Source: Mytilus galloprovincialis (taxonomy: Eukaryota > Mollusca > Bivalvia > Mytilida > Mytilidae). From it: a stretch of DNA of 64,000 nucleotides. The notes beneath the pieces were generated by a model that was not told the origin of the DNA, ran no database searches, and worked only from the letters and a program-made list of their open reading frames with translations. The translations under genes were made by a program, and so were the position numbers. Where the stretch lies: positions 31,000,958-31,064,957 of the forward strand of contig NC_134842.1 in the NCBI RefSeq assembly GCF_965363235.1, given 5' to 3'. Position 1 is the first letter of the stretch. Every line of letters starts with the position of its first letter. Below, in pieces: positions 1 through 64,000 of the stretch.

Positions 1-2093
1 AGTTCCGGGGATAGTATGGTGTCCAGTATGTGAAGAGGGATTATGCAGTGAGTGTCTTGATCACCATAAAGCAGTAAAGGCACTGAGAAACCATGATACT
101 ATGCCAATAGACTGCTACCAAGATATTCAAAAGGAAGTGCATGATTTAGATTTGCAGTGTACACTCCACAATGAAAAGTATGAACTGTACTGTCCTGTTC
201 ATGAAGTTCACTGCTGTTTCCAATGTGCAAATTCCGAACATAACAAATGCACAGGAGTAACTCTTCTTCATAAATTTATAGAAAACATTAAATCATCAGC
301 ATCTCTTGTTAGTCTAGAACAAGCATTACAAGAATGGATAAAACACTTTGAAAAGTTAAAGTTAAATAGAAAAATAAACATTGATAGAATTGAAAAGCAG
401 GCATCTGATATGGTAGAAGAAATTGGTAATATTAGAAGTGATTTAGAAAACCGAATTGCAGCTGTTGAAAGCCAATTGAAAACTGATTTAAAGTTGCAAA
501 AGAGTGAACAAAAAAGTTCCATTAAGAATGTAATTGATCAATTAGAAAGTCATAGCAATGTCTACATTGAAATGTATTCAGCTCTTTCAAAATTAAAAAA
601 GAATGGGACAAACTTCCAGTTATACACCATCATTAAAAAATATGAAGCCAATCTGCTAAAAGAAGATAAAGCCTTAGGGTTAACAGAAAATGAAAAGGGA
701 ATTCAGGAAATAGATTTTTTCTTTTCTAAATCATCTGAGATTGATCAGTTTCTTACCAAAGATTCCAGTTTTGGGATAATAAAGATAAATCCTTTACCCC
801 CAAGTTGCAAAATGAGTATCAGAAAAGACCACACTGCCCAAATGCTTTCAACAGAAATGGTAAATTCTGCTGTTATTTCAAAGGGACCAGTAACAGTTCA
901 AGATCCTGAACATGCAGTTATAAACAGTCAAGAAACGTGGTTCAGTTGCTTCAATGGAATTTGTAAAACATATAAAGACTTACAGCTTAGCAAAAAAGTA
1001 TGACAATATAGAAGATGCTAATTTTTCAAATGCTGTTATTTTACCCTCAGGGGATATTATTATCACTGATTGTGCAGAACAGGGTGGCATTTTAGTTTTT
1101 GATAAAAATGGATTTTTGAAATCAGAAATTAAGAATCTCGGTAGAGCTCATTGTGCTTGTTTAGTAGATAATAAACATTTAGCATTTTCATTCCCAAAAA
1201 ATGAAAATGTAAAACTATTGAGCATTGACCACATGAAATTACTAAACACTTTTAAGCTTGGCTCCACATGTGTTGGATTAGCATCTGCACAAGGAAATAT
1301 TGTGGTCTGTACTAGACCCTCTAGGCCAAAATTAAAAATATGTTTGTTTCCCCTCCCCCCACCCGGGTCAAAAATAAGCCCCCGGGTCAAAAATTATTTT
1401 CCACAAAAAAATCGAAATTATTTTTTTCCTGAAAATAATTTGTTTCCATTTTTGGAAAGTGCTTGAAAGCAGGATTGATAATCTAAATAAATACACTCAA
1501 ATTGAGCACAAACAACTGATAAGTGGCCTGGACTGGACAAGTCAAACAATCCATGTGACCTGCATGCTATGACAATCACATCCAGTTAAAAAAAAAAAAA
1601 AAAGAACCTGCCTTCCTGGTCTATTTACAAAGGGTAGACCCGGGGGAGGGGAAACAGACATTCTTTTAAATGTGGCCCTAGTATATTTGTTATAGACACG
1701 TCAAATGGGAATATTTTGAAAGAAATGGATTTACACTTGAATTATATTACTCATGTGCAGTTTTATCAGACACATATGTTGATAACACAGGTGAATTCAA
1801 ATATCATTTGGTGTTTTGATAAATATGGAAATGAGGAGAAAAAATTTGACTTTGGAAATAAGGACTTCAGAAACCTGTGTGTTGATAAATATGGAAATAT
1901 TTTTGTTTCTGAAGTAGACTCTAACAAAATTTATGTACTTTCTTTCACCAGTGGAAAGACAAGAGTTCTTCTGAATGAAAATAATGGGTTAGAACAACCA
2001 AAAGCCATTGCATATAATGAAAAGTCTGATTCCATTGTGATTGTTGGAATGAATGGTATTTTCTCTGCCATTTTTGACATTATCTATGAATAA
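1..2093 (+). pseudogene. TRIM-like B-box / coiled-coil / NHL protein, 5'-incomplete and disrupted
   Basis: An open frame enters from the left edge. It shows a B-box 1-like zinc motif (WCPVCEEGLCSECLDHH, about 17-73), then a B-box 2 (CTLHNEKYELYC to HNKC, about 158-250), then a long charged coiled coil (about 280-700). After position 954 come propeller-like repeats with NHL character (ILPSGDIIITDC, VDKYGNIFVSEVDSNKIYVL). This order is that of TRIM2/3/TRIM56-like proteins, usually E3 ligases or RNA/signalling adaptors. The RING would lie left of the window. Two lesions are visible. The B-box/coiled-coil frame stops at 1001-1003 while the propeller continues in another frame that overlaps from 954. 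A 370-bp miniature transposon splits the propeller at 1312-1681; the frame resumes as SIFVIDTSNGNILKE, so one copy of the target site restores the reading frame. Stop at 2091-2093, poly(A) signal at 2102-2107. No introns, as in many bivalve TRIM expansions. It is probably a young pseudogene; a base-call error for the frameshift cannot be excluded, but the insertion stands. Confidence 0.8.
1312..1681. mobile_element. Miniature inverted-repeat transposon inside the TRIM-like gene
   Basis: The two ends are imperfect inverted repeats of about 45 bp. The left end runs from CTAGGCCAAAATT at 1321 to CCCCTCCCCC near 1360. The right end, read in reverse, runs CTAGGGCCACATTT to CCCCTCCCCC. A CTAG duplication flanks it (1312-1315 and 1678-1681). 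There is no coding capacity. Removing the element plus one CTAG rejoins the propeller frame of the host gene exactly. The exact left boundary (1316 or 1321) is uncertain. Confidence 0.75.
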
Positions 2094-17800: not shown

Positions 17801-20800
17801 TATAGGGAATCACTGAAGCGTGACAGAATCCCCCCCCCCCTTTTAGCCAGTCAGTGGGCCCCCTCTTATGAAAATTTCTAGATCCTCCACTGCATCAGTA
17901 TTATTAGAGGATGAAGGATTACAGTAGAAGCATTTTAGAATATTAACAAAGGAAATGAGCAATAATTGTCTTGTTAAGACATATGAACCTTAATATCACA
18001 TGTATATAAGTATAATCTAATAATTTTTAAAAGTGTTGACCTTTGCTTTTTAATTTGTCATTGATATTTTGTTTGAAGACTTTATAGTTCTGAATTGGTT
18101 CCATTTTAAATCACATTTTGTTCTGCTTTTAATGAGTAGAAATAAGATTTGAGTTATTTAATGAAATACATTTGTAGCTACATGTACCTCTCCCCCCCCC
18201 CCCCCCGACATATATATTTTAATTACTTTTCTGCTCCACATATAAAATACTTGTTTCTTAAAATATCCTAGTTATGGAAAATTACATTAATACATTTTAT
18301 TTTTTAATATTGTAGAAGAAAAGTTTAACTGATGATTTGGAGCAAGATGAAGGTTTTGGTACTCAGTCATTCAGGTCATCAGGTCAGACTGACCACCTCA
18401 AGCCTAATAGACAAATGGAAATTATGAATGGTCAAGAAGTTTATCATGAGGATGAGGACAGTGTCCAGTTAGAGGAGCAGAATCTTGACCAGGAAGAAGA
18501 CTATGATGATGAAGATGAAGAAGAGGAGGAGGAGGATTTTGATGTAATCAATAATATGTTATTTTGTTACCATTCAAATCATTTTTGTTGAGCCTTCGCC
18601 TTTAGTCTAAAAAACGAGACGTATAGATCCTACATTCTGTCGACAGCGTTGTCCTCAAATATTCACTCTGTGTTTAAAGTTTTTGAAATTTTGATAACTT
18701 TCTTAAACTATCCTGTTTTTCTACCAAACATGGACAGAAGCTTGTTTGTGTTCATAAGATAGTATCCAGAAATAAATTTTGTAAAAATAAAATTCCATTT
18801 TTTCCGTAATTTACTTATAAATGGACTTAGTTTTTATGGCCAGAAATATTACATTCACTCTGTGGTTAAAGTTTTTAAAATTTTAATAACTTTCTTAAAC
18901 TAACCTGGATTTGTACCAAACTTGGATGGAAGCTTGTTTATGATCATAAGATAGTATCCAGAAGTAAGTTTTGTAAAAATAAATTTCTATCGTTTCCATA
19001 TTTTACTTATAAATGGACTACGCATAGAAATATTGCTATTTCTGAATCAGTGACATTTGAATCAAGATTTGCAACATTTGATCTATTGACATTAAAAAAC
19101 AACACTTTGTATACAGTGTCAGAAATTCTCTCTTACGATGTCAAAGTTGTACAGGAACATCTGTCATGGCCAGTAACAGCCCTAAACTATAAATCTTTAT
19201 TAAACTTTCCTGAGAAATTTTGATGTGCTACACGAGACCTATTGCTGTTTCTGAATCAGAGGCATTTGATTTGGGACATTTCAGCTTTTCACTGAATATA
19301 AAGTCATATACAATAACAAAAATACAATGCATGCAGCATGCAAATAAATTGTGTATTAATTCTATATCCACTTTGATTAATATTTATATAAGATTTTGAA
19401 AAACAATCTGTCCTGAGAATTTCAAATTTTTTATTTATTTTTTACAAGGAGGAGGAGGAGGACCAAGATAATGTGACCTCAGAAGAAGAAGACAGACCAA
19501 TGGCAGGTGCTACGCTAGATGACAGACCAGTAATTGGATTAGGAGGTAAGCTTACTTCATAATACATTTGTGTGGCATTCTTCTTGGAATAAGTAGTTGT
19601 TTTACCAGCTAAACGAGTATATTGGTCTGTTGATTGAACTTTTTATTGTAATTTATGGTTATTGTCTTTTCTCCTTAGAGAATGATGTATTATTGGAAAT
19701 TCAGATAAATAGAAAAATTGTGCTACAGATCAACATAGTGTGAAGTAACTTTTATTGAAGTAGATGGGTGGTCATAATTTAAATCCATAGAATTTTTTAA
19801 TAATTTGTCAAAATGTAATTATATCATTCTTTTTAAAAAATGTAATAAAAGGTATGGGTCACCCTGCTTTTTTTAAGCTATGGGTTGAGCAAAATTGTCA
19901 GATTTTGTATAGATTATGCATGGAAAACCCAAATTTGTGTGATAAAAAGAAAACTCACCATAGAAGGTTAAGATAAAATATGAGAATATAGCCCCAATGA
20001 TATGCTTTCTGATAAGAAAAAGAAATAATGGGGTCACAGGACTCACTTTCTTGCTACATAATAAAATAGGTAAACTCACAACACATTCTATTATAAAAGT
20101 CACTTTATCGAGTTATCTCCCTTTTATCTGAGTTATCTACCCTTATATTGAAAATTTTTATTTGTCAAACTAGAAAATAATAATAGTAATAAAAAAAAAT
20201 GTATATGTAAATACATGTATGTTATATCAAGATGTATTTATTTTTTAAGAGAAAAAGACTTTTGAAGAATTACTAGAAGAACAACTAAGAGCAGAGGAGG
20301 AGAGGGTATTTATTTTCTGTCATATCTATTACAAGAAATTGATTTTTACTAGTGTTTTTACTCTATTACTGTGGATTATCGACTTGATACACTGTACTGA
20401 TGACACGATTAATAGATGTGTATTGGGAAACCATAAATTTGAATATTGAAGTAAATATGCTAAAAGCTTTGTTTGTAAGATTTGACATTACTGCAAAAAT
20501 GAGTCTCCACTTAAAAGAAAGTATAGTTTTTCTTCAATCTATGAAAATTAGTTCCCAAAAAATAATAGAATCCACAGAATACGATCTCTGATGTCTGTTT
20601 TAATTACGGTTATGTTTCATGGTATGAGTAGGAATGTCCATGTGCAGTTCAATCATTACACACTATGGAAGACACATTTTCTGTTCTTCAAACATTTTTT
20701 CAACAAAATATTTGATACTATTTGATACTATTACATCATAGGTCTTTATAATTGTGATGACCATGATTGACGCAACATTGTTTAATATTTTTTTTTTCAA

Positions 20801-23800
20801 ACAAAAAACTCCATATACCTCTAAGCACTCAAAAGGCAAATATTAAACATGTATATCAATTCTTTATTTGTCTACAGATGAGGCTACAAGCATCAAAAGG
20901 TGAAAATGTAGAAAGTCCAAAGAGATGTTTTTTGAAAAAGGGACAAGGAATTGCTAGGTATGGTTTACAGTCCAAATCAAAACCTACAAAAGATTTGAAA
21001 TCTGTAAAACCTAAAGTGGATAGTAATTCCTCACAGCAAAATAGACCATCAAAACCTGATACTCAACAAAATAAGTCTGCCAAACCAGACAGTAACTCTA
21101 GTCAGCAAACTAAAACAGCAAGGGGAGATAATAGACCGAACAAAATATTAAAGGGAGACAATTCAACAAAACCTCAGAAGGCTGGTGGAAAAGAGGCTGT
21201 TCCAGAAACCAAGAAACGAGGGGTAAATCTATTTAAACCTTTAGCTTTCAATTCATTTATAATTGTCAAATTACCTGAACATACAAGAAATATGTAAAAT
21301 AAACATTTTAAACATAATTTGCTGATGAATCAAAAAATCTGTGATACTTTTATACTTAAATACTTGTGGTTTAGAGATTTTGAAAAGCTTTTATGACACT
21401 ATATTGAAAAATTGTAATGGACTTGTTTGGCAAGTTAAATGATGTTAATGTGACATCTTGAAGGTTTTTTTGCTAATTAAAAAAAATTGTAAGCTTTGTG
21501 TTTCTATAATTTATGAATGATAATTTTTGTGTAAAAACTACTATTAGTAATGTATGAAAATAAAGTGTACTCCTCTAATTTTGGCGGTCAATTATTCTGA
21601 TTCTTTTTATTTTCAGACTTGGCAGGACAGAAATAAACTAAACTTGAAGACTTCACCAGCAAAGAACCAGAAACTTATTAAATCTCCAAATGCCAGAGAG
21701 GACATACTACCAAAATATCAGCAAACAAGTAGTGTCAATGATCAAAAAGTACAAGATAAAAGACTACTTAATAAACCTCCTAAAGGAGAACTTCCTAAAG
21801 GGAGACAACAAATTCAGAAACCAAATGGAAATATAAATAAACAACAAAGAACTGAGGAAAGGGAAACAGTGTCAGATTCCCCTGATTTCATGTCAGATAA
21901 TGATTCATTTGTTGTAAGGATACATCAAAGAGCAAAGAATGATGTATTAGAGAAAGAAGAAGTTGATGAATTTGAATATCTAGAGAACTGTGCAGACAAT
22001 ATGTCATTCTGTAGTCAGTCATCGTTTGTTACCAAAATATTACAGAAAGATAAAATGAAACATGATCCCTTAAAACCTTTACTGCAGGTAAATTTGTAGT
22101 CTTATTTATACCAAATTGAATGCTGTAAATTCAGAAATTAATGTGTTTTTATTAATGTGAATAATGGGATTGGGTAAGTATCACAATAATAAGAACTCTA
22201 ATTCTAAAAACTGAAACATAGACCAGATGCAGATTTTTTCTCTCGAAATTGCTACAATTAAAAACTCTCATTTTTATTCATTCTTAAAAAATCCCAGTAA
22301 TATCTTAATTTACAGTATCAACTTATATTGTACCTATAGATTTTAGAAAATTCAATTAGTTGTGCAAGATAATCATCATGTACTGATTGTGTACTTTTAA
22401 TACGTGTGTACATTGTGTAAAATGAGATGTTTTCTTTTTTACATTGCCCAATATAAGATGGCATCTTTTAAATATTCATAGTAAGTAATATATACTGATG
22501 TTTTTTCCAAGTTTCAGATAGAAGCATAAAAATGTTACACAGTCCAACAGTGAGCTTTAATATATGTACTTGCACTGTGAATATACACAATGTAAGTTCA
22601 TTAATGGACTGTTTAATGTTTATATCCTAAAAATATTAAATATTTAGGTTTCATGTTTCAGATTATAAGCTAAAATTAACAAGATTACAAAGTTAACTAG
22701 TCAACAAGTTTTCTTTTGTCTGATAAAATATGTACTCAAATTTACCTCTTTCTTTCTTACTTGTAGTCTCCAAGAACGTCAGTTGCAATGCAGCTTCAAG
22801 CTACAATCAAAAATGCAACACAGCAACATCAAAGTTTACATCAAGATGTTCACAGGTAAGTGAAATAAGGATTATAAGTTTGTTATTGAAAAATGAAAAC
22901 AAAAGTGTATAAATTACTGAAAGGTTTTAATAACAATTTCTAAGGGGTCATCCATAATTATCAACCATTTTCCAAAGTGTACAAAATGTACACTTAGGGG
23001 GACGGGGTTCAAAAATCAACATTTTTACAGTAAGCTTTTTTTCATCAAATGAAATAAAACAGTCAGATATGTTTCAGTTTCTTTTCAATGCAAATTTCTA
23101 TATTAAACTAAACTTTAATAGACAGGATCTTCTTTTTATTAAGAATTATTGATTCTTGTCTTGAAATCTGAAAATGGTTGATGTACACTTTCTGAGGGAG
23201 GGTGGGGGGTCTGAAAAAGTGTACGTTTTGTACACTTTGGAAAATGGTTGACAATTATGGATGACCCCTAATACAATGTAGAAAAGGGCTATAATTAGTT
23301 ATACTTCTGAAAATGGTCTGTTTAAACCTGAATTCTTTTTTCAACAACATTATATATTTTATTCACCAATTATAATTGTTACGTTGTTACTTCAAGGAAC
23401 CAAGCTTTTCTTTATGAAACTTTAAAATATTAATCATGAATTACTGAATTTTACATTTAAAAAACGACTAGAAGGACATTTTTTCAACAGTCAATTACCA
23501 ATGCAAGAAAAGTTTGAAAAGTGGAAACCTATTTTTTTTATGATCAGAAACATTTGAAACATTTGATAAGATAGACCAAAAGTAATTAACCTGCAAATAT
23601 TATGATAGTAACGAGTGCAAAATAGAAATCAATCATATGAAAACCCAAGAACCAAAGACTTGCTGGTGGACAATGAAATAACACAATAAGTGAACATTTG
23701 TTTGATTTGTAAGGTATTCAGTCATTAAAAGGGCACTTGCTGTCACAAGTTATCCCATTGTAAAATATTTATCCAAAAAATAAAAGTCTAATTTAAACAA

Positions 23801-32800: not shown

Positions 32801-35800
32801 AGCAGTAGGTCTAGTATATTTGATGTATGGAAGGACTGTAAGGTGTACATGTCCTACTGGCAGGTGTCATCTGACCCTGACCTCAATTTCATGGTTCAGT
32901 GGTTATAGTTAAGTTTTTGAGTTTTGGTCTGTTTTTCATATACTATGTGCAATAGGTGTACTATATTTGGTGTACAGAATGATTGTAAGGTGTACATGTC
33001 TAGCTGACAGATGTCATCTGACCTTGACCTCATTTTCCTGGTTCAGTGGTCAAAGTTAAGTTTTTGAGTTTTGGTCTATTTTTCTAATAGTATATGCAAT
33101 AGGTCAACTATATTTGGTTTATGGAAATATTTTATGAGCTATATGTCAGTCATGCAGGTTTCAATTGACCTTGACCTCATTTTCACGGTTCATTGCTAAG
33201 TGTTTTAAAGTATTTGTGTTTTGGTCTGTTTTTCATATACTATATGCAATAGGTCTACTATATTTGTGTGTATGGAATGATTGTAAGGTGTACATGTCTA
33301 GCTGACAGGTGTCATCTGACCTTGACCCCATTTTCATGGCTCAGTGGTCAATGTTAAGTTTTTGAGTTTTGGTCTATTTTTATAATAGTATATGCAATAG
33401 GTCAATGGAAATATTTTATGAGCTATATGTCAGTTGTGCAGGTTTTAATTGACCTTGACCTCATTTTCACGGTTTTTTCTTAATTTACAAGCAATAGGTC
33501 AATTATATTTGTTTTATGGGAGATTTCTTAGCTGTACATGTCTGCCTGGCATGGTTCATCTGACCTTGACGTCATTTTCATGGTTCTTTGATCAATGTTT
33601 AGTTTTCTTGGTTAATGTTGACAGTTGTAATAAAGCTTTATATTTAGGACTATCAACATAGTATCAATGATTAGTAAAGAAGGCGAGACATTTCAGCGTG
33701 TGCACTCTTGTTTATTTATTGTGCAGTTTGATATCTTGAAATGTGTTTTGAAAGACTTGGTAGTAATTTAGAACTGTAACTAAGGGAATATGATGGTCTG
33801 CATGTTATCATAGTTTATGTGATGATGTGAAATATCCGTTTTCCATCCGGTTGCCAATAGTGTAGTAAGTGGGATTAAACACCTACAAAAGAGGGGTGAA
33901 GGATACCAAAGAGACAGTCAAACTCATAGATTGAAAATAGACTGAAAACGCCATGGCTAAAAATAAAAAGACAAACAGACAAATGATAGTACAGAAGACA
34001 CAACATAGAAATCTAAAAACTAAGCAACACAAACCCCAACCAAAAACTGGGGGTGATCCCAGGTGCTCTGAAGGGGTAATCAAAGTACATTGGTATATTT
34101 ATTTACATCAGTGAGACATCAAAAACTTTATATTTTGTAAGTTGATTGGTATAAAATATGATTATCAATAATCAAGGTATAACTTTTTCAAGTAAGTTTT
34201 GTTTAAAAAATAAATCAAATTATGTTATAGTCTCCGTCTGAATTATATTATAGGTATATTACTATGCTGAAGCTCAGACTACACATTCTCATTATCCTGA
34301 TGGTCTAGAAGTTCTACAGTTTCCAAAGTAAGTATTATTTTTATCATATGAGAAAAAAAATTGAAATATAAGGTAATGTCAAAATGAAGGTACCCCACAA
34401 TGTAAGTCAACAACAAGGATATCTAGTGGTCTTAATACTGTCTCCAATGACACATCACGAGAATGAATTCAACAGGGATGCCCAAATATCTATTACAACT
34501 GTGAATTAAAAATAGGTAAAAGACACACAAAGACAGAAACACTTACTGATGAGATTCCTGACTTGGGATAGGGACCAGGAGTTAGAATAGTATGTTTTAA
34601 ACTAAATTTATAAGATAGTTATACCACAAAATTTTCAATTTTTTATCTGTATGTTTTAAAATAACACAATGAATGAACTCAATTACATTGATACCAATCT
34701 CTTAATTAAATCTTTGATTTCTTTGATTCCAAAGAAGACTTTATATTTTTTTTATTCAATTGTCTCTTCCCTTTTTCATGTTCAGGCAAATAAAATATGT
34801 TTGAATTTTTTGTATGCATTTTTTTCTTTTTTAAAAGTCTGTACAATTTTTCAAATAATTTCAGCAATCAACAGGAGAAACATTATCCAGATGGAACTAA
34901 GGAAATCACATTTGCAGATCAAACCATTAAATACTTATTCCCTAATGGTTCAGAGGAGAGCATCTTTTCTGATGGTACTGTTATACGAGTAGATAAGAAT
35001 GGAGATAAAACCATGGAGTTTCCTAATGGGCAGAGAGAAATACATACAAATGATTATAAAGTGAGTTTGTTATTTATAAGAAGACATAGAATTCATTGCA
35101 TAGTTGTGCCCCACCTAGGACAGTAGAGGGACATTATGAATTCCAGTCTGTGTGTCCATTTGTTCGTCTGTCTTTCCTCATTCGTTTTTATGCCCCTCCT
35201 ACGATAGTAGAGGGGCATTATGTTTTCTGGTCTGTGCGTCCGTTCGTCCGTCTGTTCGTTCGTCCGTCCGTCTGTCCCGCTTCAGGTTAAAGTTTTTGGT
35301 CAAGGTAGTTTTTGATGAAGTTGAAGTCCAATCAACTTGAAACTTAGTATACATGTTCCCTTTGATAAAATCATTCTAATTTTAATGCCAAATTAGAGAA
35401 TTTATTCCAATTTCACGGTCCACTAAACATAGAAAATGATAGTGCGAGTGGGGCATCCGTGTACTGTGGACACATTCTTGTTTCAGTCTGATCTGCCTCA
35501 TGTTAAAGTTTTTGGTCAAGGTAGTTTTTGATGAAGTTGAAGTCCAATCAACTTGTACACATGTTCCTTATGATATGATCACAGTCCACAGCGCATAGAA
35601 AACGATAGTGCACGTGGGGCATCTGTGTACTATGGACATTTAATGCATTTAGATAATTGTGGCAGATTTGACTTTATAGGCCTTTTAATATTGGTCTGCT
35701 CTCCAAAGAGATCTTTCATTAAGCCATTAGATTATCATGAAATGTGAAATATTAGAAATTGAACTGTAAAACAATTGAAGGAAACCAAATAAAATCAATA

Positions 35801-39347: not shown

Positions 39348-40414
39348 TCCAAAATTGTCAAATAAAGGATATTTGATCCAGTCAAATAGGAATGCTGATG
39401 GTAGTGTAGATGAAATGTGTGTCTGAGGTGCCACATTACAAGCCTGGTATCTTTGGTGTGTTTTTACAACCAGTGGGTCAATGCAACTGGAGGCGGAAGA
39501 CTTCTGTTTTGCCTGCAATGAAAGACTTGGAAAGTGAGATAGTGTATTGCTTTACTGGAGGTAGAAACAGCAGAGGAGGATGGGTCAATCCTTTTTTAGT
39601 CAGTTTGAAAGGAAGTACTTTTGAAAGAACAATAATATTTTCTTTTAAGTTGCATTACTATCAGTTCATATCAGTTTGACCCCTCGTGCTCATGGTCTAG
39701 TCAATTGACAATGTAAAACAGGTTTGTTATAAATTGTGTCAATGCCAAAGTACTGACAAGTTTGATGATGATACGGTCGGGAACTGAGAATCCATCAGCA
39801 GCAGTAATGACTCAGTTCTGTAAAAGATTAAAACAATACTGCGTCAAAATCCCTTTTTACATTTTTCAGCCACGCTCAAACGTTGAATATTTAAAGGCAA
39901 GTATGCATAAAGATACAAAGATACGTTTATCTAAGATAATTAATACCAGCATAAATATTTACTACCATGTCTTTGTAGCTTCAACTTATAATTGCAATTC
40001 TTAATGTCAAAACATAACTCAAAGCAATCATTTAAATGAGATATGAAATACGTTTTTCAATCTCCTAATTAGTTTTCATTAACATCAAATTAAAAGTATT
40101 CCCATTTCTGGTTTACAACTCTTTTTTGATATTTTTCTAATGATATTTTAATGACGAGGAAAAATACGATCTTTAAAAACATGTTTATATGCTTTTGCGA
40201 ACTTAAGCACTATAAAACCAGGTCCAATCCACCATTTTCTACATTTGAAAATGCCTGTACCAAGTCAGGAATATGACCGTTGTTGTCCATTCGTTTGATG
40301 TGTTTTTTCATTTGATTTTTCCATTTGATAAGGGAATTTCCGTTGTGAATTTTTCTCATTGTTCAGCATTTTTGTGAATTTTTGTAGACACTAATTTCAA
40401 AAAGATCACTCATC

Positions 40415-42175
40415 ATGATTTACTTAACATTTTGTATATTGAGTACTCTGCCAATGATCAAATCGCAGGACAACTCTTCTGCTCCTAGAACCGTTTCCAT
40501 TGACGTGGACAATATTGGTGAGGTTTCAGTTTATTCTGATGATCTAAGTGTACATCCCCTCGGAAACACTGGACTATCATTTGTCCTTCATCATACAAAT
40601 GATCTCTATATCATAAACATTATTGATAGAACTTGTTCCGGTGTGTTCATAGATTTTTCTAATATCTATGAAGTGCTAGAAAATGAAACATGTAAGAGAA
40701 ATATTCATATCTCAAAGTTATTCGATTCTGTCAATGATACTTATAACGTAACTTTCATAGATGACGGTATTATTCCGTTATTTGAGGATATTGGTATTAC
40801 ATTTGTTGACAAACAGTGTATTGATGACTTTAAACTATTTTTATCCACCAAAGGAATTGCCAAAATAAGCAATGAAGAAATACATTACTTTCTTACTAAT
40901 TGGACAGATTGTGTACAATGTGTAACATTGGCAAAAGAACATATATTTCATGTTAATGTGTATGTGGAAAAAGGCCTATCAAAAGATGGCATAACGTCCA
41001 TTGGAGAATCACCAGTAATGTTTAGCTTTGAAGATGATAAATGTGTAGACAATTTTGTCGACTTTGTTGCTTTGTACGGACACATAGACATAGAACATCA
41101 GGACTTTCTTGTCAGTCCATCTAACATTAATGAATTTCATCGGATATATAAATGTTTAGATTTCCGTATTCCGTGTTATGGAGAGAGGTACGATGATAAT
41201 TTTCTTGTCCTTCCCCCAAAACCCGCCGCAATTGCAGGCTCTGTGCTATCAATTGTAATCATAGTGGTTAATACGTATGTTATGTTCGTCTTTCTACAGA
41301 CAAAAAACCGATCACCGATGGTAATAATGTTATCTGCAATTGCTTTGACCGACATGCTTACTGCAGTTTTTGTATGCACTCCTATGACAATACCATATTT
41401 GTTGTATGATCGCCAGATAACATTTTCTCCACATTATAATTCATGGTTATGGTTAAGTTATGACTATGTAACGTTTATTTTATGGACAGAAAGCTTTGAA
41501 ATAAGCAATATATTTCACATGGCATCAATTTTTATCACAACAGCCTTATGTGTCCAGAGAGCTGTTTCAATGCTGTTTCCAATATGGAGTAAAATACATA
41601 TAACCAATCAAGTCTGTGTGTACACCTCAATAGTCTTGTTTGGATATTCATTTATTTTGAATACAGTATTGATCATATGTCATTTGAATTTATCTTTGAA
41701 TATAGATGGTATACTTTGCATAGATTATGAACGTTTAGATATTTTAGAAATAGAAAGTTACACATACCTTTTGATTAACATATCTTATATTTCTTCTTGC
41801 ATCTTAATGGTTGTCTGTTCCTTCTACATTGCGTGTAAACTTACGCTATTAAGAGAAAACCTTAAGTGGGTTGACAGCCAAGAAGTACAGAAAAGAAATC
41901 GTAGATCAGCTGTCATTGTTGTTGTTATCTCTGTTATCTGTACTGTATCTGAAGTTATATCAATAATGACTTTAACTTTTCATTTTGCGACGGATGAACA
42001 GATAGATAAGTTTATAGGAGACTTCTTCGACTTGCTTTATCCATATCAACAATTGAGTATCACCATTGGATTCTTTTGTAATTTCTTTGCTTACTTATTT
42101 ATGGGTACACAATTGAGAGAGACAATTTTCGAAAGCTTCAAGAGAGTTATAAACTGCCTACAATGTAAGTGCTAA
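40415..42175 (+). CDS. Rhodopsin-like GPCR with signal peptide and repeated ectodomain, 586 aa
   Basis: A single coding exon. A TTTTTGTAG acceptor lies about 25 bp before the ATG, implying a 5' UTR intron. Residues 1-17 form a signal peptide (ending MIKSQ). Residues 18-265 are an extracellular region with N-glycosylation sites and paired cysteines. They contain two related blocks: ITFVDKQCIDDFKLFLSTKG ... NWTDCVQC, and FSFEDDKCVDNFVDFVALYG ... YKCLDFRIPC. Seven membrane helices follow: about 271-293, 300-330, 360-390, 400-425, 448-478, 496-523 and 547-571. TM3 ends CVQRAVSMLFP in place of the usual DRY motif; TM7 has NFFAY in place of NPxxY; TM6 lacks CWxP and has ICTVSEVIS. These features point to the FMRFamide/myosuppressin/srw-like side of class A, probably peptide-binding; the ligand is unknown. 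A decayed tandem copy follows. Possible poly(A) signal at 42756. Confidence 0.88.
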   Translation: MIYLTFCILSTLPMIKSQDNSSAPRTVSIDVDNIGEVSVYSDDLSVHPLGNTGLSFVLHHTNDLYIINIIDRTCSGVFIDFSNIYEVLENETCKRNIHISKLFDSVNDTYNVTFIDDGIIPLFEDIGITFVDKQCIDDFKLFLSTKGIAKISNEEIHYFLTNWTDCVQCVTLAKEHIFHVNVYVEKGLSKDGITSIGESPVMFSFEDDKCVDNFVDFVALYGHIDIEHQDFLVSPSNINEFHRIYKCLDFRIPCYGERYDDNFLVLPPKPAAIAGSVLSIVIIVVNTYVMFVFLQTKNRSPMVIMLSAIALTDMLTAVFVCTPMTIPYLLYDRQITFSPHYNSWLWLSYDYVTFILWTESFEISNIFHMASIFITTALCVQRAVSMLFPIWSKIHITNQVCVYTSIVLFGYSFILNTVLIICHLNLSLNIDGILCIDYERLDILEIESYTYLLINISYISSCILMVVCSFYIACKLTLLRENLKWVDSQEVQKRNRRSAVIVVVISVICTVSEVISIMTLTFHFATDEQIDKFIGDFFDLLYPYQQLSITIGFFCNFFAYLFMGTQLRETIFESFKRVINCLQCKC

Positions 42176-46971: not shown

Positions 46972-48711
46972 ATGATTTACTTCACACTATTGATATTGAG
47001 TGCTATGCCTATGATCAAATCGCAGGACAACTTTTCTTCTCCTAGAACCGTTTCCTTTAACGTCGACAATATTGGTGAGGTCTCAGTTTATGCAGATGAT
47101 TTAACAATCCTCTCGGAAACACCAAACTATCTTTTGTCCTTCATCATACAAATGATCTCTTTATCATAAACATTATCGACAGAAATTATTCCGGTGTGGA
47201 CATAAAATTTTCTAATATCTATGAAGTGCTAAAAAATGAGACATGTAAGAGAAATGTTCATATCTCAAAATTATTAGATGATGTAAATGATAACTTTTGA
47301 AGATGCCGGTATTATTCCATTTTTTTGAAGACATTGGTATAACATTTGTTGACAAACTATGTATTGGTGAATTTAAACTGTTTTATCCATCAAAGGAAAT
47401 GTCAAAATAAGCAATGAAGAAATACACAACTTTCTGAAGAACTGGACTGACTGTTTACGATATGTAATATTGGCAAAAGAACATATATTTAGTGTTAACG
47501 TGTATGAGGCATATCAGAAATTTGCATAATTTCACCGGAAAAATCATTAGCAATGTTTAGTTTTGAAGATGATAAATGTGTAGACAATTTCGTCGACTTA
47601 ATTGCTTTGTACGGATACATAGATATAGAATATGAAGACTTTCAAGTCAGTCCGTCTAACATTAATGAATTTCATCGGAAGTATACATGTTTAGATTTCC
47701 GTATTCCGTGTTTTGGAGAGAGGTACGATGTTAATTTCCTTTACCTGCCACCAAAACCAGCCGCATCTGCAGGCTCAGTTCTATCAATTGTAATCATAGT
47801 GAATAATACACATGTTATGTTCGTCTTTCTACAGAAGAAAAAACGATCATCGATGGTAATAATGTTATCTGGAATTGCTTTGACTGACATGCTTACTGCA
47901 GTTTTTGTATGGACTCCTATGACAATACCATATTTGTTGTATGATCGCCAGGTAACGTTTTTTTTCATATGATAAGTCATGGGTATGGCTAAGTTATGAC
48001 TATTTAACGTTTAGTTTATGGACAGTTCTAAGCTTTGCAATAAGTAATATATTTCACATGGCATAAATTTTTATCACAACAGCCTTATGTGTCCAGAGAG
48101 CTGTTTCAATGTTGTTTCCAATATGGAGTAAAATACACATGACCAATAAGGTCTGTGTGTACACCTCGATTGTCATGTTCGGATATTCATTGCTTTTGAA
48201 TATATCAATGATCATTTGTCATATGAATTTGTCTTTGAATATAGATGGTATACTTTGCGTAGACTATGGACGTTTAGATATTTAAAAAATAGAAAGTTAC
48301 ACAATCCTTGTCGTTAACATATCTTATATTTTTTCTTTCATCTTAATGATTGTCTGTTCTCTCTACATTGCGTGCAAACTTACGATTTGAAGGAAAAACC
48401 TCGAATGGGTTGACAGCCAAGAAGTGCAGAAAAGAAATCGTAGATCAGCTTTCATTGTTGTCATTATTTCTATCATCTGTACTGTATCTGAAATTATATC
48501 AATAATGACTTTAACTTTTGCTTTTGCGACGACTGAACAGGTAGATAAATTTTACAAAGGCTTCTTCTACCTGCTATACCCATATCAACAATTGAGTATT
48601 ACCATAGGATTCTTTTGTAATTTCTTTGCTTACTTATTTATGGGTACACAATTGAAAGAGACACTTTTCGAAAGCTTCAACAGAGTTATGCTTAAACTTT
48701 GTGAGTGCTGA
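46972..48711 (+). pseudogene. Decayed tandem copy of the rhodopsin-like GPCR
   Basis: It begins like the intact gene (MIYFTLLILSAMPMIKSQDN against MIYLTFCILSTLPMIKSQDN) and matches it to the C-terminus (GFFCNFFAYLFMGTQLKETL). Several lesions are visible: a frameshift after about residue 52 (near 47110), further shifts in the ectodomain (47290-47520), a frame change in the loop after TM2 near 47960, a TAA in TM3 where the intact copy has a serine codon (about 48064), and a TAA/TAG pair near 48283-48291. The longest open pieces are 47553-47972 (late ectodomain to TM2) and 48424-48711 (TM6-TM7). No functional receptor is expected. Confidence 0.92.
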
Positions 48712-57256: not shown

Positions 57257-58880
57257 CTACTGCGGATCTCTGCAATAACCTAAAACAGAAAAAAATGAAG
57301 TTTCAATATTAAAAGCGTGCATTCATTTCATAAAAAAAGCCGAAGGAATTATGCTAGTTTATATGGAAAAGTCACAAAGATAAAGTAGTAAATATAGAAA
57401 ATAATATGTTTATGAAAAACGAAGTTCTAGTTTCACCAAGAACATGGCAAACATAGATCATAGGCTTTCTTTTTCCCTTGATCAAATTGCTTCGCGTTGT
57501 ATTTTACTTGACTTTGTTTAGACTTTGTATGCCTTTGATAGTCCTTTTGAAATTTAACCCAGAAAATTACTTTCAACACAAGGGGATCTATACATTTTGC
57601 TTCCGTTTATACACACCTAGTTCTCCGAGTGGAATATCATAAACACCCCTTCCTTTACATATTAATGGTGAGCTACATGGGCACCCAAATACCAGTTGGT
57701 CAGGTGGCTGTGATGCAGAACCATATCTAACGTAACATCCTAAAGTGACAGGTTTGTAAATGTATATGACTAATTCGGATAAATGTATATTTCTGTCTGT
57801 TCGTAAACAATTTTAAATGAAAAAAAAATAAATGAAAACCATTTCTCTTTGTGTTTGTTATTTCCCTCATAAAAGAATAAAGGAAAACTAAATATAATTT
57901 TGGGGTGCTTTCGATAATGTTACGATAATCTTTGCAAAAAAAGAAAAAAAAAAAAGAAACTTTGACATTCTATAAACACAGCAATACATAATTACTACTT
58001 TTTTTATGTTTTAATGCCAGTACATTGCAGATTGGTACCAAACTGTTTGTGCTAATAACCGCCTAATTAGTTTTGGGTGTATTCAGTACTTAATGAAAAG
58101 AATCGATTAATTTGGTTTTCTAAATTCCCTGAACTAAGCTATATAAAAGAAAGTTTTCTGGACGATTCTTCAATATAGAATTGTTAAGACATTTTATATA
58201 TTGTATGAAAAATTACATACTAGTATTTAAAATCAAATGCTTTGTATCTATACAGAAATTATTTTCATACATAGCACATTACCTGATTTTTCAGTCCCAA
58301 GTGGTTGACAGTATCCTTTGGGTTGGTCAACATACCTCTTTCCTATAGGTCTAACAATACTGATACAACATTCATTTCCAGAACAGTCTGCTGGTGTATT
58401 ACAAGGTGGTGGATTTGCCAGCTATTAAAACATTAAAATATTAAAAATTATCCATATTAATAAAATATAGTTTACAACATATATTTGCAATTAGGTTTGA
58501 TTTAAAAACATTCTGTAGTGGAAGCCTTATTATCAAACTCGATTTGATCAAATTCCATTCAATAACTTATTAAAGTCTCACGTTATGTACAAAGATGAAT
58601 ACATGTACATAATACATAACATATTTTTTACTCTACAATACAAAATCCACACAAAAAAGAAACTTTATAGCCCTTAAAACTATATAAGATACATAAAATA
58701 TATGTCCCACAGTAATAAAACTATCAGGTATATTGATGAATGTGACTTATTAATTATGTTGAAAATACAATCTAGATACTTATCATTTGAATTTCACTGC
58801 TCATATTTTTTTGAAAATATCATACTCACCACTATCATAAAACAAACAGCAAATATGTAAAGAAAAGTATTGAGCTCCAT
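57257..58880 (-). CDS. Secreted prokineticin/astakine-like peptide, gene 1, 111 aa, 4 exons
   Basis: Exons 58880-58830, 58421-58283, 57739-57617 and 57279-57257; all GT-AG, phases 0/1/1, 336 nt. Residues 1-19 are a signal peptide (MELNTFLYIFAVCFMIV then LA). The mature part has ten cysteines at 24, 30, 35, 36, 55, 65, 83, 85, 91 and 107. Spacings such as C-x5-C-x4-CC, C-x9-C-x17-C-x1-C-x5-C match the prokineticin (AVIT) fold, and the words NECC, YCQPLG and FGCPCSSPLIC are family-like. The N-terminal AVIT hexapeptide of vertebrate prokineticins is absent, as in invertebrate astakines, which are haematopoietic cytokines in crustaceans and also reported in oysters. Role here inferred: secreted signalling peptide. 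No exon is long enough to stand out as an open frame. A paralogue lies upstream. Confidence 0.9.
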
Positions 58881-60993
58881 AACAATAAAACGTGACTTTG
58901 TCTATAACATAGTACAACAGATAAGAAAGGTCAGTTGACATAAATAAATGTTCCTGTCTATGGACAAGGCGTTCGTAATTAAGTTCCAACAACAATAGTA
59001 GAAGATGTGTCACGATTGCCAATAACACAACTTTCAATAAAAACCAAAGGGTCATCGTGGTCAATAATTAGTAATTTTCACACTGCATAGTGAGATATAA
59101 AAGGTCCCAGAATTACAAATGTGAAACAATTCAAACGAGAAACATGAGAAAACCAGCTGATAAAACGAAATCAAATATGGGACTATTCAACCATCGAGAA
59201 GATATATTTTTCAAGTTCGTAGTGTATCAGCTATTTGCTATTTTGTCACTCGTGTAATGGAAATACAACGGGTCATTTCTAGCCAGATATAGTAGTGTTC
59301 ACCGATGAAGTCAAAAAATCGAATGCGAAACAAGTTGTAACAAATTGTTTGACCGATATGATGTGAATGTGTCAACTGACAAATGATCTAATATCTTTAT
59401 AAACTTAAATAATTGTATTTTCTGTAAACGATTTTAATTGTTTTCGGAGTTCGGTATTTTTGGTATGTTGCTTTTTTTTTTAAATATCTGAGCCAAAACT
59501 TTGACTAAATGTGATAAATTAAAGCACCTTGTTCTTTCAAAATAGTTTTGATTAGTATACTTTTATTGCAGTTTCAGTCCTCCTTTCAAAATATTTACTA
59601 CTCCCGGTTGAAACATATTTACTGAGTGGATTTACATGTGCAGATGCATGCATATCAGTGGCATATTTATCTCGTCGATCTACTTAGTTTCGCTCCCTTT
59701 AAAGTACATGCAATTCAACTTGATTTTTATCTTCTATGTGGAATTATAACAATTGAATAACTACTGTTGCCTCGAATTCAGCTTGGGCTTCATATTTCAT
59801 GTGACTGAGTTTGTTTTAACATATCTTCGTAACATGATGAGCATCGCTAATAAATATCTAGAAAAAGGACATGTTTGTTCAGCAATAATACAGAAAGGAA
59901 TTTCCACCACATATTCTTTTCATAACATGGATTATAATCTGTCTGCTACAAATGCAAGGACTTTTTTCCTTAATGTTCCCAAATCATGACACACGCGTAG
60001 TTGTTTCCAAACATGACATAATATTTCAATCTAGAAAGCCTTGAAGATTCTTTCATCAATGACAAACCTACATTTTGTTAGAACATTCCAATACCGCCTA
60101 TTAGTATTTTACAAACACCTCTAACATTAAATAAACCCAACTAGCTTGATTACAACGGTAACAAAGGCTACTGTTTGTTAGTTTTACAGTTGTTTTAAAT
60201 GTCGGAACTGGTGGAAGAAGAACAATAAATTGATTTGTACGCTTCAGAAACAAAAGGTTTAAAGAGCAGATAGGATTACAAAATAAGCTGATAGATCGGT
60301 AGTTTAATTAACTGGAATTTCATGGCTGGTTTGAATGATAAAGTGGAATCTGAATTTTAAACCGTAAAAGAAGAACATGTATGTTTCTGTCCATTGTAAT
60401 AATCACATACAGTGCTTCAAAATCAACGAGAGCTTAAATAAGTGCAACCTAATTTCTTTGTTTTCATTTCTTGTTAATGTTGACACTATGATTTGAAGAT
60501 ATATTAATTAACCCTCCCCCCATTATCACAAATTTGTTCACTTAATTTTGATGTTAAATCGTTTTTTTCTTTTTCTCTATAACACAAGAATAGGCATGCA
60601 CAATACTTAACCTTGCTGGTCAAGACACACTGTTGTTAACAGTGAGAGAGACTTCACAGACCATTAAAAAAGAAATCTAAACAATTATAAAATAATGGGT
60701 GATTGGAAAAAATCCCTCGATAATTTTCAATTTTTACCAAATTCATCTGGCCTAAATGTGGATTTTGAAACACGCGGAGGCCGTTTTGAAAAAAAACGTC
60801 AAGCGGAAAACTATTTCTTACGTTACAGGAGACCAACAGGAAGAAACACACCATGTTCGGTGCTTGTAATTTCAAACAAACTATTGTGCCAACATCTTTT
60901 CATTAAAATAAATTATTAACAAAAAAAAAGATTTAAAATATGTGTACGGCATGCTGCTTTGAAGCATTTATTGTATGTTTGCGACACATCATG
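58881..60993. other. Spacer between the two astakine-like genes
   Basis: The block at 60240-60420 repeats 56858-57040, showing that the duplicated unit includes 3' flank. A plus-strand frame at 60695-60919 (MGDWKKSLDNFQFLPNSSGL..., 74 aa) lies in about 520 bp (60430-60950) absent from the other unit. It has some coding character (FETRGGRFEKKRQAENYF) but no recognisable family or splice context. Nothing else seen. Confidence 0.45.
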
Positions 60994-63151
60994 CTACTGC
61001 GGATCTGTACAATAACCTAAAACAGAAAGAAAGATTTATTGCCATGCGTTTTACTTATTTCATAAAACAACCTACAATGAATTACTGTAAACCAACTTAT
61101 TTTCGCGGATACTTTATTTCGCGTTTTACCCTTTCTAGACCACTTCGCGGGTATTTAATTTCGCGATTTTCTGATGTACTTGATGAAGTTTAATAAGGAA
61201 TATTGGAAATTTTACATATTCGCGACGATTTAAATTCGCGTTATTTTTCTACTCGCGAAAGTCGCGAAAATAAATCGCTCGCGAAAATAAGTTGGTTTAC
61301 AGTATGCTAGTTTATGAGGAAAAATGCACAATGATAAAGTAGTTAATATCGTAAATAATTTGTTAATGGAAAGGATGGTATATTCTTATCTAGAACATGT
61401 CACGTATTGACCATATGCTTTTATCATTCCCTAGGTGAAAATGCTTTAACCTTTGCATATATTTGACCATTTGATATATTGACAGTCCTTTGAATATTAT
61501 CCAGAAACATGCTGTCACCTAATGGTGATCTGTACATTATACTTATAAATATACCTACCCAATTCGCCAAGTGGAACATCATAAAAACCCCTTCCTTTAC
61601 ATATTAATGGTGAGCTACATGGACATCCAAATACTAGTTGATCAGGTGGCTGTGATGCCGAACCATATCTAACATAACATCCTACAGTGACATGAAATAT
61701 TCGGCTTAATCAACAGTTTAAAATTTAAAAGAAAACAGATACATGTTATTGTATGTATTTGATCGTGTTAAATTTTGGGAAAGTGAAACAAATTGTTACC
61801 GGGTACATCAATATTTATATCACGATAATAAAATATCTAAAGCTATTGACTTTAACAAGGCCATGTTTCATTGCAGTTAGATGCTATAATTTTCTACAAA
61901 TAACCACCCGACGCCTACTAGTATACACCAAACTAAATAAAAAAAGTTAAGGAAAAGTCAGAATAGATTTATTGTTATATAAATTCCCAGAATCAAACTG
62001 TTTTTGAGAAATTTCTCTTTAATTTACTGTAAAATGACTTGAGCGTGTAGGTGAATGTAATATCTTTGACTGGCTTGCTAGCTATCTGAAGCATGAAGTC
62101 ATTATTAGGTTCTTCAATAAACGGGATTTGAAAAAAAGTTTTTTTTATTGTGTACCTAAGTAGCTTATTCAAAATAAAATATTTTTGTTTGTATACAAAA
62201 ATTATATACCAACATAGTATATTACTGGATTTTTTAGTCCCAAGTGCCTGACAGCGTCCTTGAATCCTAAGGTCAAGAAATCTCTTTCCTAAAGGTCTAA
62301 TTAAATTGATACAACATTCATTGGCAGCACAGTCTTTAGGTGAATTACATGGTGTTGAATCCGCCAGCTGTTATGTCATAATATCAAAATAAGGAGATGA
62401 GTTACGATTGCCATTGAGATAATTTTCCACCAAAATTGAAATTAAGTGGATGTATGCACTTATATGTAACCGTAGATCGGTCATTAGCAATGAGAAACAC
62501 CATTACCAAAGTCTTTAAAAACAGTTGTTATTATCCTTACTATTTATAGATGTAGTTTTACATTGTATCTTTTTAATTTGGAATAACATTTGTATGTGAC
62601 TCGTCGAAAAATTTATTATAAACTGGGATATTATCAAATTCAATATTTTTATAAAGTCTCACCTTTTGTGCAAAGATAAATAAATTATTGATTTAATATT
62701 TTTTTACAGCAAAACACTAAAGTTAATCAATACAGTAATATGAGTGCCGATAGAAGCAAAACAAAATACATTAAAATATATATAGATATAGGAAGATGTG
62801 GTGTGAGTGCCAATGAGACAACTCTCCATACAAATAACAATTTAAAAAGTAAACCATTATAGGTTAAAGTACGGCCTTCAACACGGAGCCTTAGCTCACA
62901 CCGAACAACAAGCTATAAAGGGCCCCAAAATTACTAGTGTAAAACCATTCAAACGGGAAAACCAACGGTCTAATCTATATAAACAAAACGAGAAACGAGA
63001 AACACGTATATATTACATAAACAAACGACAACTACTGTACATCAGATTCCTGACTTAGGACAGGTGCAAATATTTGCAGCGGGATTAAACGTTTTAATGG
63101 ATCCAAACCTTCTCCCTTTTTCTGAAACAATAGCATAACATCACAACAAAG

Positions 63152-63189
<38 letters not shown>

Positions 63190-64000
63190 ATACGATAAAA
63201 TATCAATTGGCAGACTTAACTCAATCAAAAAACGTATGATTAAACAATGAACGAATAAATTTGATCTGCGATATCTGAATACAAATGCACAGTTAATTAA
63301 ATATTAGAGACAAACATTCATAACAATAAAGATATAAACATGTGAAAGCTCTCTCACAGGCAAACAACCAATAACTGAAATATATAAGGGCATACACTAC
63401 AAGCACGGGGACACATTTTACTGCATCCACACAGCACGAGTAACAAACCCTGCAGTAAATAGATATATATGCACAGTAATAAAATTATCAGGTCCTTTTA
63501 CAATTGTGACTGATTTTTTTTTTTTTTTTTTTTGACATATAAACGTTTTATTCCTAAATATTTCCTGTGTACAATTACCTTAGTCGTACAGGATCAGGCT
63601 AAGGGTCCCTGTTTACAAATTGAAACCATCTATCCAGGGGAAATAGAAGGCAATAAAAAAAGTAGTCCACTTTTAACCTTGGATTTACATCTGGTTGATT
63701 GTGACTGATTAATTTTGTGGAATAAATTATATACAAATATTTTTTACAGTAAAACACAAAAACAAGCATTACAGAGACTACAGAAATACGATGGACGATA
63801 AAAGCTATATAAGATACATTAGAATAGATATACACAGTAATAAAACTATCAGGTCTTTTTTTACAATTGTGACTGATTAATTTTGTCGAATATAAAATCT
63901 TAACATGAACTGGTACCTATGCATTTTATTTTAGTGCTTACTTTATATGAAATTTTGAAAATTAAACTTACCACTGTCAAAACAAATACAGCAAAAATAC
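60994..64000 (-). CDS. Secreted prokineticin/astakine-like peptide, gene 2 (5' end beyond window)
   Basis: Exons: partial signal exon 64000-63972 (reading IFAVFVLTV before GTAAGT), 62367-62226, 61681-61559 and 61016-60994 (stop TAG). Same intron positions and phases as gene 1. All ten cysteines are kept (CNSPKDCAANECC ... RCQALG ... CYVRYG ... CPCSSPLIC ... GYCTDPQ). Exon 2 is one codon longer and differs at about 20 of 47 residues, whereas exon 3 differs at 2 of 40. The exon-2 donor is A|GTAATA rather than G|GTAATG, giving Arg instead of Gly at the junction. Intron 1 has received a dispersed repeat and a processed insertion; intron 3 a miniature transposon. It looks functional within the window. 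Confidence 0.88.
61083..61304. mobile_element. Miniature transposon with TACTGTAAACCAACT ends, copy 2
   Basis: Ends TACTGTAAACCAACTTATTT and its reverse complement are nearly perfect for about 25 bp, TA-flanked. The interior is full of TTTCGCG/CGCGAAA motifs. It lies in intron 3 of astakine-like gene 2. Confidence 0.9.
62790..63450. repeat. Dispersed mussel-type repeat with a 37-base A run
   Basis: Starts at GGAAGATGTGGTGTGAGTGC, continues with ACGGCCTTCAACACGGAGCC and CAGATTCCTGACTTAGGACA, and holds an A run at 63152-63188. I recognise it as a common mussel repeat but cannot name the parent element. It lies in intron 1 of astakine-like gene 2; gene 1 has no insertion there. Confidence 0.6.
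63516..63697 (-). pseudogene. 5'-truncated retroposed mRNA end
   Basis: On the minus strand: an open frame ending KVDYFFYCLLFPLDRWFQFV-NRDP-stop (stop near 63600), then about 65 bp of 3' UTR with an AATAAA signal, then a poly(A) tract (T run 63514-63533). Both sides carry the 13-bp duplication ATTGTGACTGATT (63503-63515, 63698-63710). These are hallmarks of LINE-mediated retroposition. The source gene is not recognised. Confidence 0.75.

What the first reader, a model, noticed from the sequence alone, without database searches (positions are those of the whole stretch)
57257..64000. Two tandem prokineticin/astakine-like genes with contrasting exon evolution
Splice-by-splice reading shows two four-exon secreted peptides with ten prokineticin-spaced cysteines. 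Between the copies exon 3 (40 aa, the CPC core) differs at 2 residues with about ten silent changes. Exon 2 (the N-terminal cysteine cluster and loop) differs at about 20 of 47 residues. That pattern suggests strong constraint on the C-terminal half and diversification, perhaps receptor- or target-driven, of the N-terminal half. Assignment to the prokineticin fold rests on cysteine spacing and family words; the function is inference.
Basis: partly seen in the sequence, partly recalled or inferred. Interest (0 to 1): 0.72.

Follow-up and report, generated by a model that had tools for sequence, protein, structure and literature searches.

The report
Mussel-like prokineticin/astakine-like gene trio
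This is a small cluster of duplicated genes for secreted, cysteine-rich signalling-type proteins in what is probably a bivalve genome, in which one half of the protein has stayed almost fixed while the other half has kept changing; the gene family itself is already known.

Summary
Two intact four-exon minus-strand genes lie at 57257-58880 and 60994-64022 (the second one's start codon is 22 bases past the window edge). A third intact copy lies outside, at window-equivalent 66250-68445. All nine introns are GT-AG, phases 0/1/1. Ten cysteines match the spacing of frog Bv8 in 7 of 8 comparable intervals. Silent divergence among the copies is equal in exons 2 and 3 (pS 0.315, 0.313), but replacement divergence is six-fold higher in exon 2 (pN 0.195 against 0.032; column-permutation P = 0.0001), so recent gene conversion does not explain the frozen exon 3. 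Exon 2 has pN/pS 0.62: positive selection is not shown, and relaxed constraint explains it as well. Formal family membership is weak: no Pfam match for the trio; profile matches to solved structures at best E = 0.025, though all three hits are prokineticin-type. At least nine family loci were found in this genome, all on one chromosome, eight within 0.48 Mb; three are disrupted. Most likely a known kind: prokineticin/astakine-like secreted factors. Receptor-driven diversification remains inference.

The parts
58830..58880 (-). copy A exon 1: start codon and signal-peptide-like stretch (17 codons), donor gtgagt
   Evidence: with its 5' flank aligned to B at 79.9% and C at 77.8% nucleotide identity
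58283..58421 (-). copy A exon 2: cysteines 1-5 and the loop with GKR; variable half
   Evidence: found in own genome at 31059238-31059378
57617..57739 (-). copy A exon 3: cysteines 6-9 with the CPC core; conserved half
57257..57279 (-). copy A exon 4: tenth cysteine and stop
   Evidence: exon with flanks aligned to B at 87.5% and C at 81.4%
63972..64000 (-). copy B exon 1, the part inside the window (start codon at window-equivalent 64022, outside)
62226..62367 (-). copy B exon 2; donor follows A instead of G at the last exon base
61559..61681 (-). copy B exon 3, CPC core
60994..61016 (-). copy B exon 4: tenth cysteine and stop, followed by an AATAAA
62770..63060 (+). high-copy repeat inside copy B intron 1 (40 near-identical places listed in the genome, itself included); helps explain why that intron is 1604 bases long against 408 and 172

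Best explanation
These are tandem paralogues of the prokineticin/astakine-like family: small secreted proteins folded around five predicted disulfides in the colipase/AVIT fold. Shown: three intact four-exon copies in about 11 kb, equal silent divergence across exons 2 and 3, and six-fold lower replacement divergence in exon 3. Inferred: exon 3 (cysteines 6-9, CPC core) builds the shared core or a shared contact surface under strong purifying selection in all three copies, while exon 2 (N-terminus, CC cluster and the GKR loop) tolerates or favours change and may set receptor or tissue specificity. They probably act as extracellular growth or differentiation factors on haemocytes or gut tissue, as reported for oyster astakine, through a receptor other than the vertebrate prokineticin receptors, because the N-terminal hexapeptide that those need is absent. 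The exon contrast is explained by uneven purifying selection; positive selection on exon 2 is possible but not shown.
For: Gene models and splice sites. Third copy. Cysteine intervals 5, 4, 0, 18 or 19, 9, 17, 1, 5, 15 (counted) match printed frog Bv8 (5, 4, 0, 11, 9, 17, 1, 5) except the CC-C5 loop. Profile of 6 of the 9 family loci against 177,635 distinct PDB sequences: three hits at E <= 10: spider U33-theraphotoxin-Cg1b 0.025, prokineticin Bv8 2.8, intestinal toxin 1 6.1. Bv8 and MIT1 are the AVIT family, MIT1 with a colipase-like fold (PMC3303826, passages), and a table in PMC12785369 gives a U33-theraphotoxin-Cg1c-like protein the Pfam domain Prokineticin (passage). The reversed profile gives no hit. 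Exon contrast. Introns of the copies align at 58-77% identity, so the genes are not recently homogenised. Oyster prokineticins: five transcripts with ten conserved cysteines, expressed in digestive gland, no AVITGA (PMC8398477, passages); prokineticins in virtually all sampled lophotrochozoan phyla, 35 transcripts in one monoplacophoran (PMC6425005, passages).
Against: No curated profile is reached: 0 families for A, B and C, and the genome search with PF06607 finds nothing, though it rang in none of its 14 control genomes either, so that miss is uninformative. phmmer of copy A alone against the PDB: 0 hits at E <= 10. Of the three profile hits, two have E above 1. A control profile with the loops shuffled but the cysteines kept still reaches three Dickkopf-1 chains at E about 3, so part of the fold signal is cysteine spacing alone. 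No transcript, receptor or structure evidence was available. One relative scores weakly with a fungal protease inhibitor model (PF12190, E 0.037, 15.1 bits against a cut-off of 25), a lower E than the relative that touches PF06607.
Confidence: 0.72

Rival explanations
1. Positive, target-driven diversification of exon 2 (receptor or antagonist arms race) with a frozen exon 3.
For: 21 of 47 exon-2 columns vary among three copies against 3 of 40 in exon 3. Against outgroup relatives, exon 2 has many columns variable within the trio and few fixed differences, exon 3 the reverse (19:8 against 3:14 with the 37.755 Mb gene, P = 0.0016; P = 0.00016 with the 30.595 and 0.0011 with the 30.859 Mb gene).
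Against: Exon-2 dN/dS is below 1 in all 3 pairs (0.34-0.67). Saturation of fast sites in exon 2 could give the same outgroup pattern: silent divergence of the trio from the 37.755 Mb gene is 0.8-1.6 over the two exons.
Confidence: 0.2
2. A different cysteine-rich secreted family of the same or a similar fold: Dickkopf-CRD2-like Wnt modulators, or protease inhibitors / antimicrobial peptides.
For: Loop-shuffled control profile reaches Dickkopf-1; one relative has a sub-threshold hit to PF12190, fungal protease inhibitor. Small cysteine-rich peptides often expand in tandem in bivalves (recalled).
Against: The real profile hits three prokineticin-type chains and no Dickkopf chain at E <= 10. The product is a single small domain without a Dickkopf N-terminal domain. 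The signal exon is not the conserved part (A-B dN 0.23), unlike the usual conserved-signal, variable-mature-peptide layout of many toxin and defence peptides (recalled).
Confidence: 0.15
3. Exon 3 looks frozen because of gene conversion among the copies.
For: A and C are closest in the 3' half: intron 3 identity 0.77 against 0.65 and 0.60; shared-site patterns differ between the exon-2 block and the 3' block, P = 4e-8.
Against: Silent divergence in exon 3 equals that in exon 2 (pS 0.313 and 0.315, P = 0.98); 8-11.5 silent changes per pair in exon 3. The shared-site difference can also come from unequal rates, since three copies have no root; on exons alone it is P = 0.06.
Confidence: 0.05

Closest known systems
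Oyster prokineticin/astakine (Cragi-prokineticins 1-5, CgAstakine)
   Same: ten conserved cysteines, signal peptide in four of five, no AVITGA hexapeptide, several transcripts per species (PMC8398477, passages)
   Different: no oyster sequences were available to align; a tandem trio with an exon-wise contrast was not described in the listings and passages I saw
Vertebrate prokineticins / Bv8 / AVIT family (PF06607)
   Same: seven of eight printed cysteine intervals identical to Bv8; C-x-PLG motif at cysteine 5 in copy A and in Bv8, C-x-x-LG in B and C
   Different: CC-C5 loop 18-19 instead of 11 residues; no AVITGA; below the Pfam threshold
Spider U33-theraphotoxin-Cg1b (2n8k), prokineticin-type peptide
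   Same: best profile hit among solved structures, E 0.025
   Different: weak, domain-level similarity only; nothing suggests venom use here
Dickkopf CRD2 / colipase
   Same: related cysteine layout (control; PMC6425005 passages)
   Different: single domain here, and not hit by the real profile at E <= 10

Membership tests
Prokineticin/astakine-like (AVIT/colipase fold) | ten cysteines in prokineticin spacing | tested here: met
   intervals 5,4,0,18 or 19,9,17,1,5,15 in A, B, C against printed Bv8; 7 of the 8 intervals that can be compared are identical; C9-C10 of Bv8 was not printed
Prokineticin/astakine-like (AVIT/colipase fold) | match to Pfam PF06607 above its curated cut-off | tested here: not met
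   0 of the 3 trio proteins match at all; 1 of 6 family members scanned reaches 13.1 bits against 21.6
Prokineticin/astakine-like (AVIT/colipase fold) | sequence-profile similarity to solved prokineticin-type structures, better than controls | tested here: inconclusive
   3 of 3 hits are prokineticin-type, best E 0.025, others 2.8 and 6.1; reversed control 0 hits; loop-shuffled control 3 Dickkopf-1 chains at E about 3
Prokineticin/astakine-like (AVIT/colipase fold) | secreted, single small domain | tested here: inconclusive
   hydrophobic N-terminal exon and 111-112 aa products; no signal-peptide predictor on hand
Prokineticin/astakine-like (AVIT/colipase fold) | three-dimensional fold with five disulfides | not testable with these tools
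   the folding tool's description admits only proteins read letter for letter from DNA, and these are spliced; no job was sent
Vertebrate-type prokineticin (GPCR ligand) | N-terminal AVITGA hexapeptide | tested here: not met
   no such residues before cysteine 1 in A, B or C; also said to be lacking in non-vertebrate members (PMC8398477 and PMC9756803, passages)
Astakine (haematopoietic cytokine) | stimulates haemocyte production | not testable with these tools
   needs an experiment

The most novel reading that the evidence does not exclude
Modular ligand evolution by exon: after duplication one exon of a cytokine-like protein became nearly immutable, a shared core or co-receptor surface, while the neighbouring exon diversified under selection so that each copy engages a different receptor, with past exchange between copies re-pairing the modules.
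Probability: 0.15. Interest if true: 0.5.

Novelty: new member of a known kind. Interest (0 to 1): 0.3.

Why it matters
Invertebrate prokineticin-like factors lack both the vertebrate receptor-binding hexapeptide and, according to PMC8398477 (passage), any phylogenetically related receptor in protostomes, so how they signal is open. A trio whose silent sites have diverged equally but whose two halves have not points to exon 3 as the part all copies must keep and exon 2 as the part that can differ. That gives a direct guide for domain-swap and binding experiments.

Tried and rejected
Gene conversion as the cause of exon-3 identity: rejected for recent conversion by equal silent divergence and diverged introns. 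A linked receptor: a rhodopsin-type GPCR lies at 40388-42175 with a broken partial copy near 47.5-48.2 kb, but its search lists 54 matching places over many chromosomes, itself and two pieces of the partial copy included, so the linkage is probably coincidence. A mosaic, exon-shuffled history: the shared-site patterns differ between blocks, but with three copies this cannot be told from unequal rates, and the silent sites of exon 2 show no B-C closeness. An exon contrast as a general feature of the family: the pair at 30.750 and 30.859 Mb shows none in dN (0.26 in exon 2, 0.25 in exon 3; dS 0.89 and 0.37, so dN/dS is if anything higher in exon 3), and the near-identical pair at 30.595 and 30.688 Mb shows none either (5 of 139 and 6 of 122 bases differ); one member of each pair is disrupted, so neither is a fair test, but neither supports a family-wide rule. 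Three weak exon-2 hits on C7 (E 0.88-2.4) were read and dropped as unrelated. A C13 hit (E 1.7) was dropped as noise. Members left out of counts: profile A1 used 6 of 9 family loci, the three disrupted ones left out; A2 and A3 used 7 of 9.

Naming the species was tried through a mussel-specific family (PF10690, label recalled) and never answered.
Full report
Observation. The stretch 57257-64000 was read and its minus-strand genes spliced. Copy A (58880 down to 57257) and copy B (64022 down to 60994) each have four exons on the minus strand, GT-AG introns and phases 0, 1, 1, and encode 111 and 112 residues. Copy B's first 22 coding bases lie past the window's right end. A third intact copy, C, lies at window-equivalent 68445 down to 66250, in the same orientation and layout. 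No further copy was found by tblastn in the 50 kb around them. Upstream sequence and 3' flanks are also alignable among the copies, and B and C have an AATAAA shortly after the stop codon, where A has AGTAAA.

Family in this genome. Exon-by-exon searches of the window's own 1.38-Gb genome find six more loci, all on the same chromosome C5: 30.595, 30.688, 30.750, 30.808 and 30.859 Mb (plus strand) and 37.755 Mb (minus strand). Three are disrupted: the 30.688 locus has a stop in exon 2 and lacks the AG acceptor at exon 3 where its near-twin has one; the 30.750 locus has a stop in exon 3; the 30.808 locus matches exon 3 only in two pieces in different frames, one with a stop. Eight of the nine loci lie within 0.48 Mb. 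These counts are lower bounds, because the tool scores only the best candidates and finds genes exon by exon. In the five relatives with both exons found (all but 30.808), intron 2 falls in phase 1 just before cysteine 6 and a phase-1 donor follows exon 3, as in the trio.

Exon contrast. Nei-Gojobori values (dS, dN) for A-B are 0.39, 0.26 in exon 2 and 0.42, 0.02 in exon 3; for A-C 0.43, 0.29 and 0.31, 0.035; for B-C 0.41, 0.14 and 0.51, 0.04. Fisher tests on rounded replacement and silent counts give P = 0.002, 0.018 and 0.054 for the three pairs; the third is not significant on its own. Pooled over pairs, pS is 0.315 in exon 2 and 0.313 in exon 3, and pN is 0.195 and 0.032. In 10,000 permutations of codon columns, the pN difference has P = 0.0001, or 0.0002 without cysteine columns; the pN/pS difference has P = 0.003-0.004; and the pS difference has P = 0.98. 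The pooled pairs are not independent, but the permutation is over columns, not pairs. Introns 1 to 3 align at 58-77% identity. Exon 3 is therefore constrained, not recently homogenised. Exon 2's pN/pS of 0.62 does not show positive selection.

Is the contrast special to the trio? Against outgroup relatives, exon 3 has 14-18 fixed differences and 3 variable columns, exon 2 has 8-11 fixed and 19-20 variable (P from 0.0016 to 0.00016 over three outgroups). Saturation of the fast exon-2 sites would give the same pattern, since silent divergence from the 37.755 Mb gene is 0.8-1.6. Two other pairs in the family show no such contrast, but each holds a disrupted member. I treat this as suggestive only.

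Identity. Curated profiles do not accept the trio's proteins: 0 Pfam families; NCBIfam 0 of 6 members, though that library is built for bacteria and archaea; phmmer of A against the PDB 0 hits. A profile of six members hits three chains of 177,635 at E <= 10: a spider U33-theraphotoxin at 0.025, prokineticin Bv8 at 2.8 and intestinal toxin 1 at 6.1. The last two are AVIT-family proteins, and MIT1 has a colipase-like fold (PMC3303826, passages); a table in PMC12785369 assigns the Pfam domain Prokineticin to a U33-theraphotoxin-Cg1c-like protein (passage). The reversed profile hits none. A profile with shuffled loops but intact cysteines hits Dickkopf-1 at about E = 3; Dickkopf's second domain is said in PMC6425005 to correspond to the colipase fold (passages). 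So the cysteine layout places these proteins in the fold, and the residues between the cysteines lean toward the prokineticin branch. I file them as prokineticin/astakine-like, and not as Pfam-recognised prokineticins.

Mechanism. [quoted passage not shown] haematopoiesis-promoting activity is reported for crayfish, shrimp and oyster astakines; no related receptor is known in protostomes, and an ATP synthase beta subunit has been proposed (PMC8398477 passages; PMC9756803 passages). The trio most likely makes such secreted factors. That exon 3 carries a shared contact surface and exon 2 copy-specific contacts is inference from the constraint pattern.

Literature. Searches with astakine, bivalve and prokineticin, Mytilus plus astakine, Mytilus plus prokineticin, prokineticin with tandem duplication, positive selection and mollusc (none of the 20 papers listed of 86 held the word prokineticin) and astakine plus gene duplication plus exon showed no account of a per-exon contrast in bivalve prokineticins. 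Apart from listings I saw passages only, of PMC8398477, PMC6425005, PMC3308963, PMC9756803, PMC13428168, PMC3303826 and PMC12785369. The library lacks most subscription journals, so this does not show absence from print.

Verdict. A real and statistically solid exon contrast in a tandem trio of a known family. The adaptive reading is open. Interest is modest.

Noticed in passing
window 40388-42175 (+) and about 47508-48234 (+): Single-exon rhodopsin-type GPCR (7tm_1, E 7.5e-6, 26 bits against a curated cut-off of 30.5) with a long N-terminal part, and a disrupted partial copy downstream; 54 matching places in the genome, these included.
   Followed up: partly
window 20767-21297 and 34794-35126 (+): Exon-sized matches to the CPAP tubulin-binding region (below cut-off) and to Tcp10_C (above cut-off), possibly one centriolar CPAP-like gene crossing the middle of the window.
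   Followed up: no
window 2-2093 (+): B-box zinc finger (above cut-off) followed by open frames with weak beta-propeller matches, resembling a TRIM-type gene cut by the window edge.
   Followed up: no
window 62770-63060: Repeat with 40 listed places at 99-100% identity, itself included (1329 candidates seen, 40 scored), inserted in copy B intron 1; looks recently active.
   Followed up: partly
relatives at C5 30.595, 30.750 and 30.859 Mb (L013, L016, L014): The CC-C5 loop carries a run of basic residues (GRKRRS or GRKKRS type) where the trio has GKR; possible proprotein-cleavage site inside the domain. Not tested (sequences).
   Followed up: no
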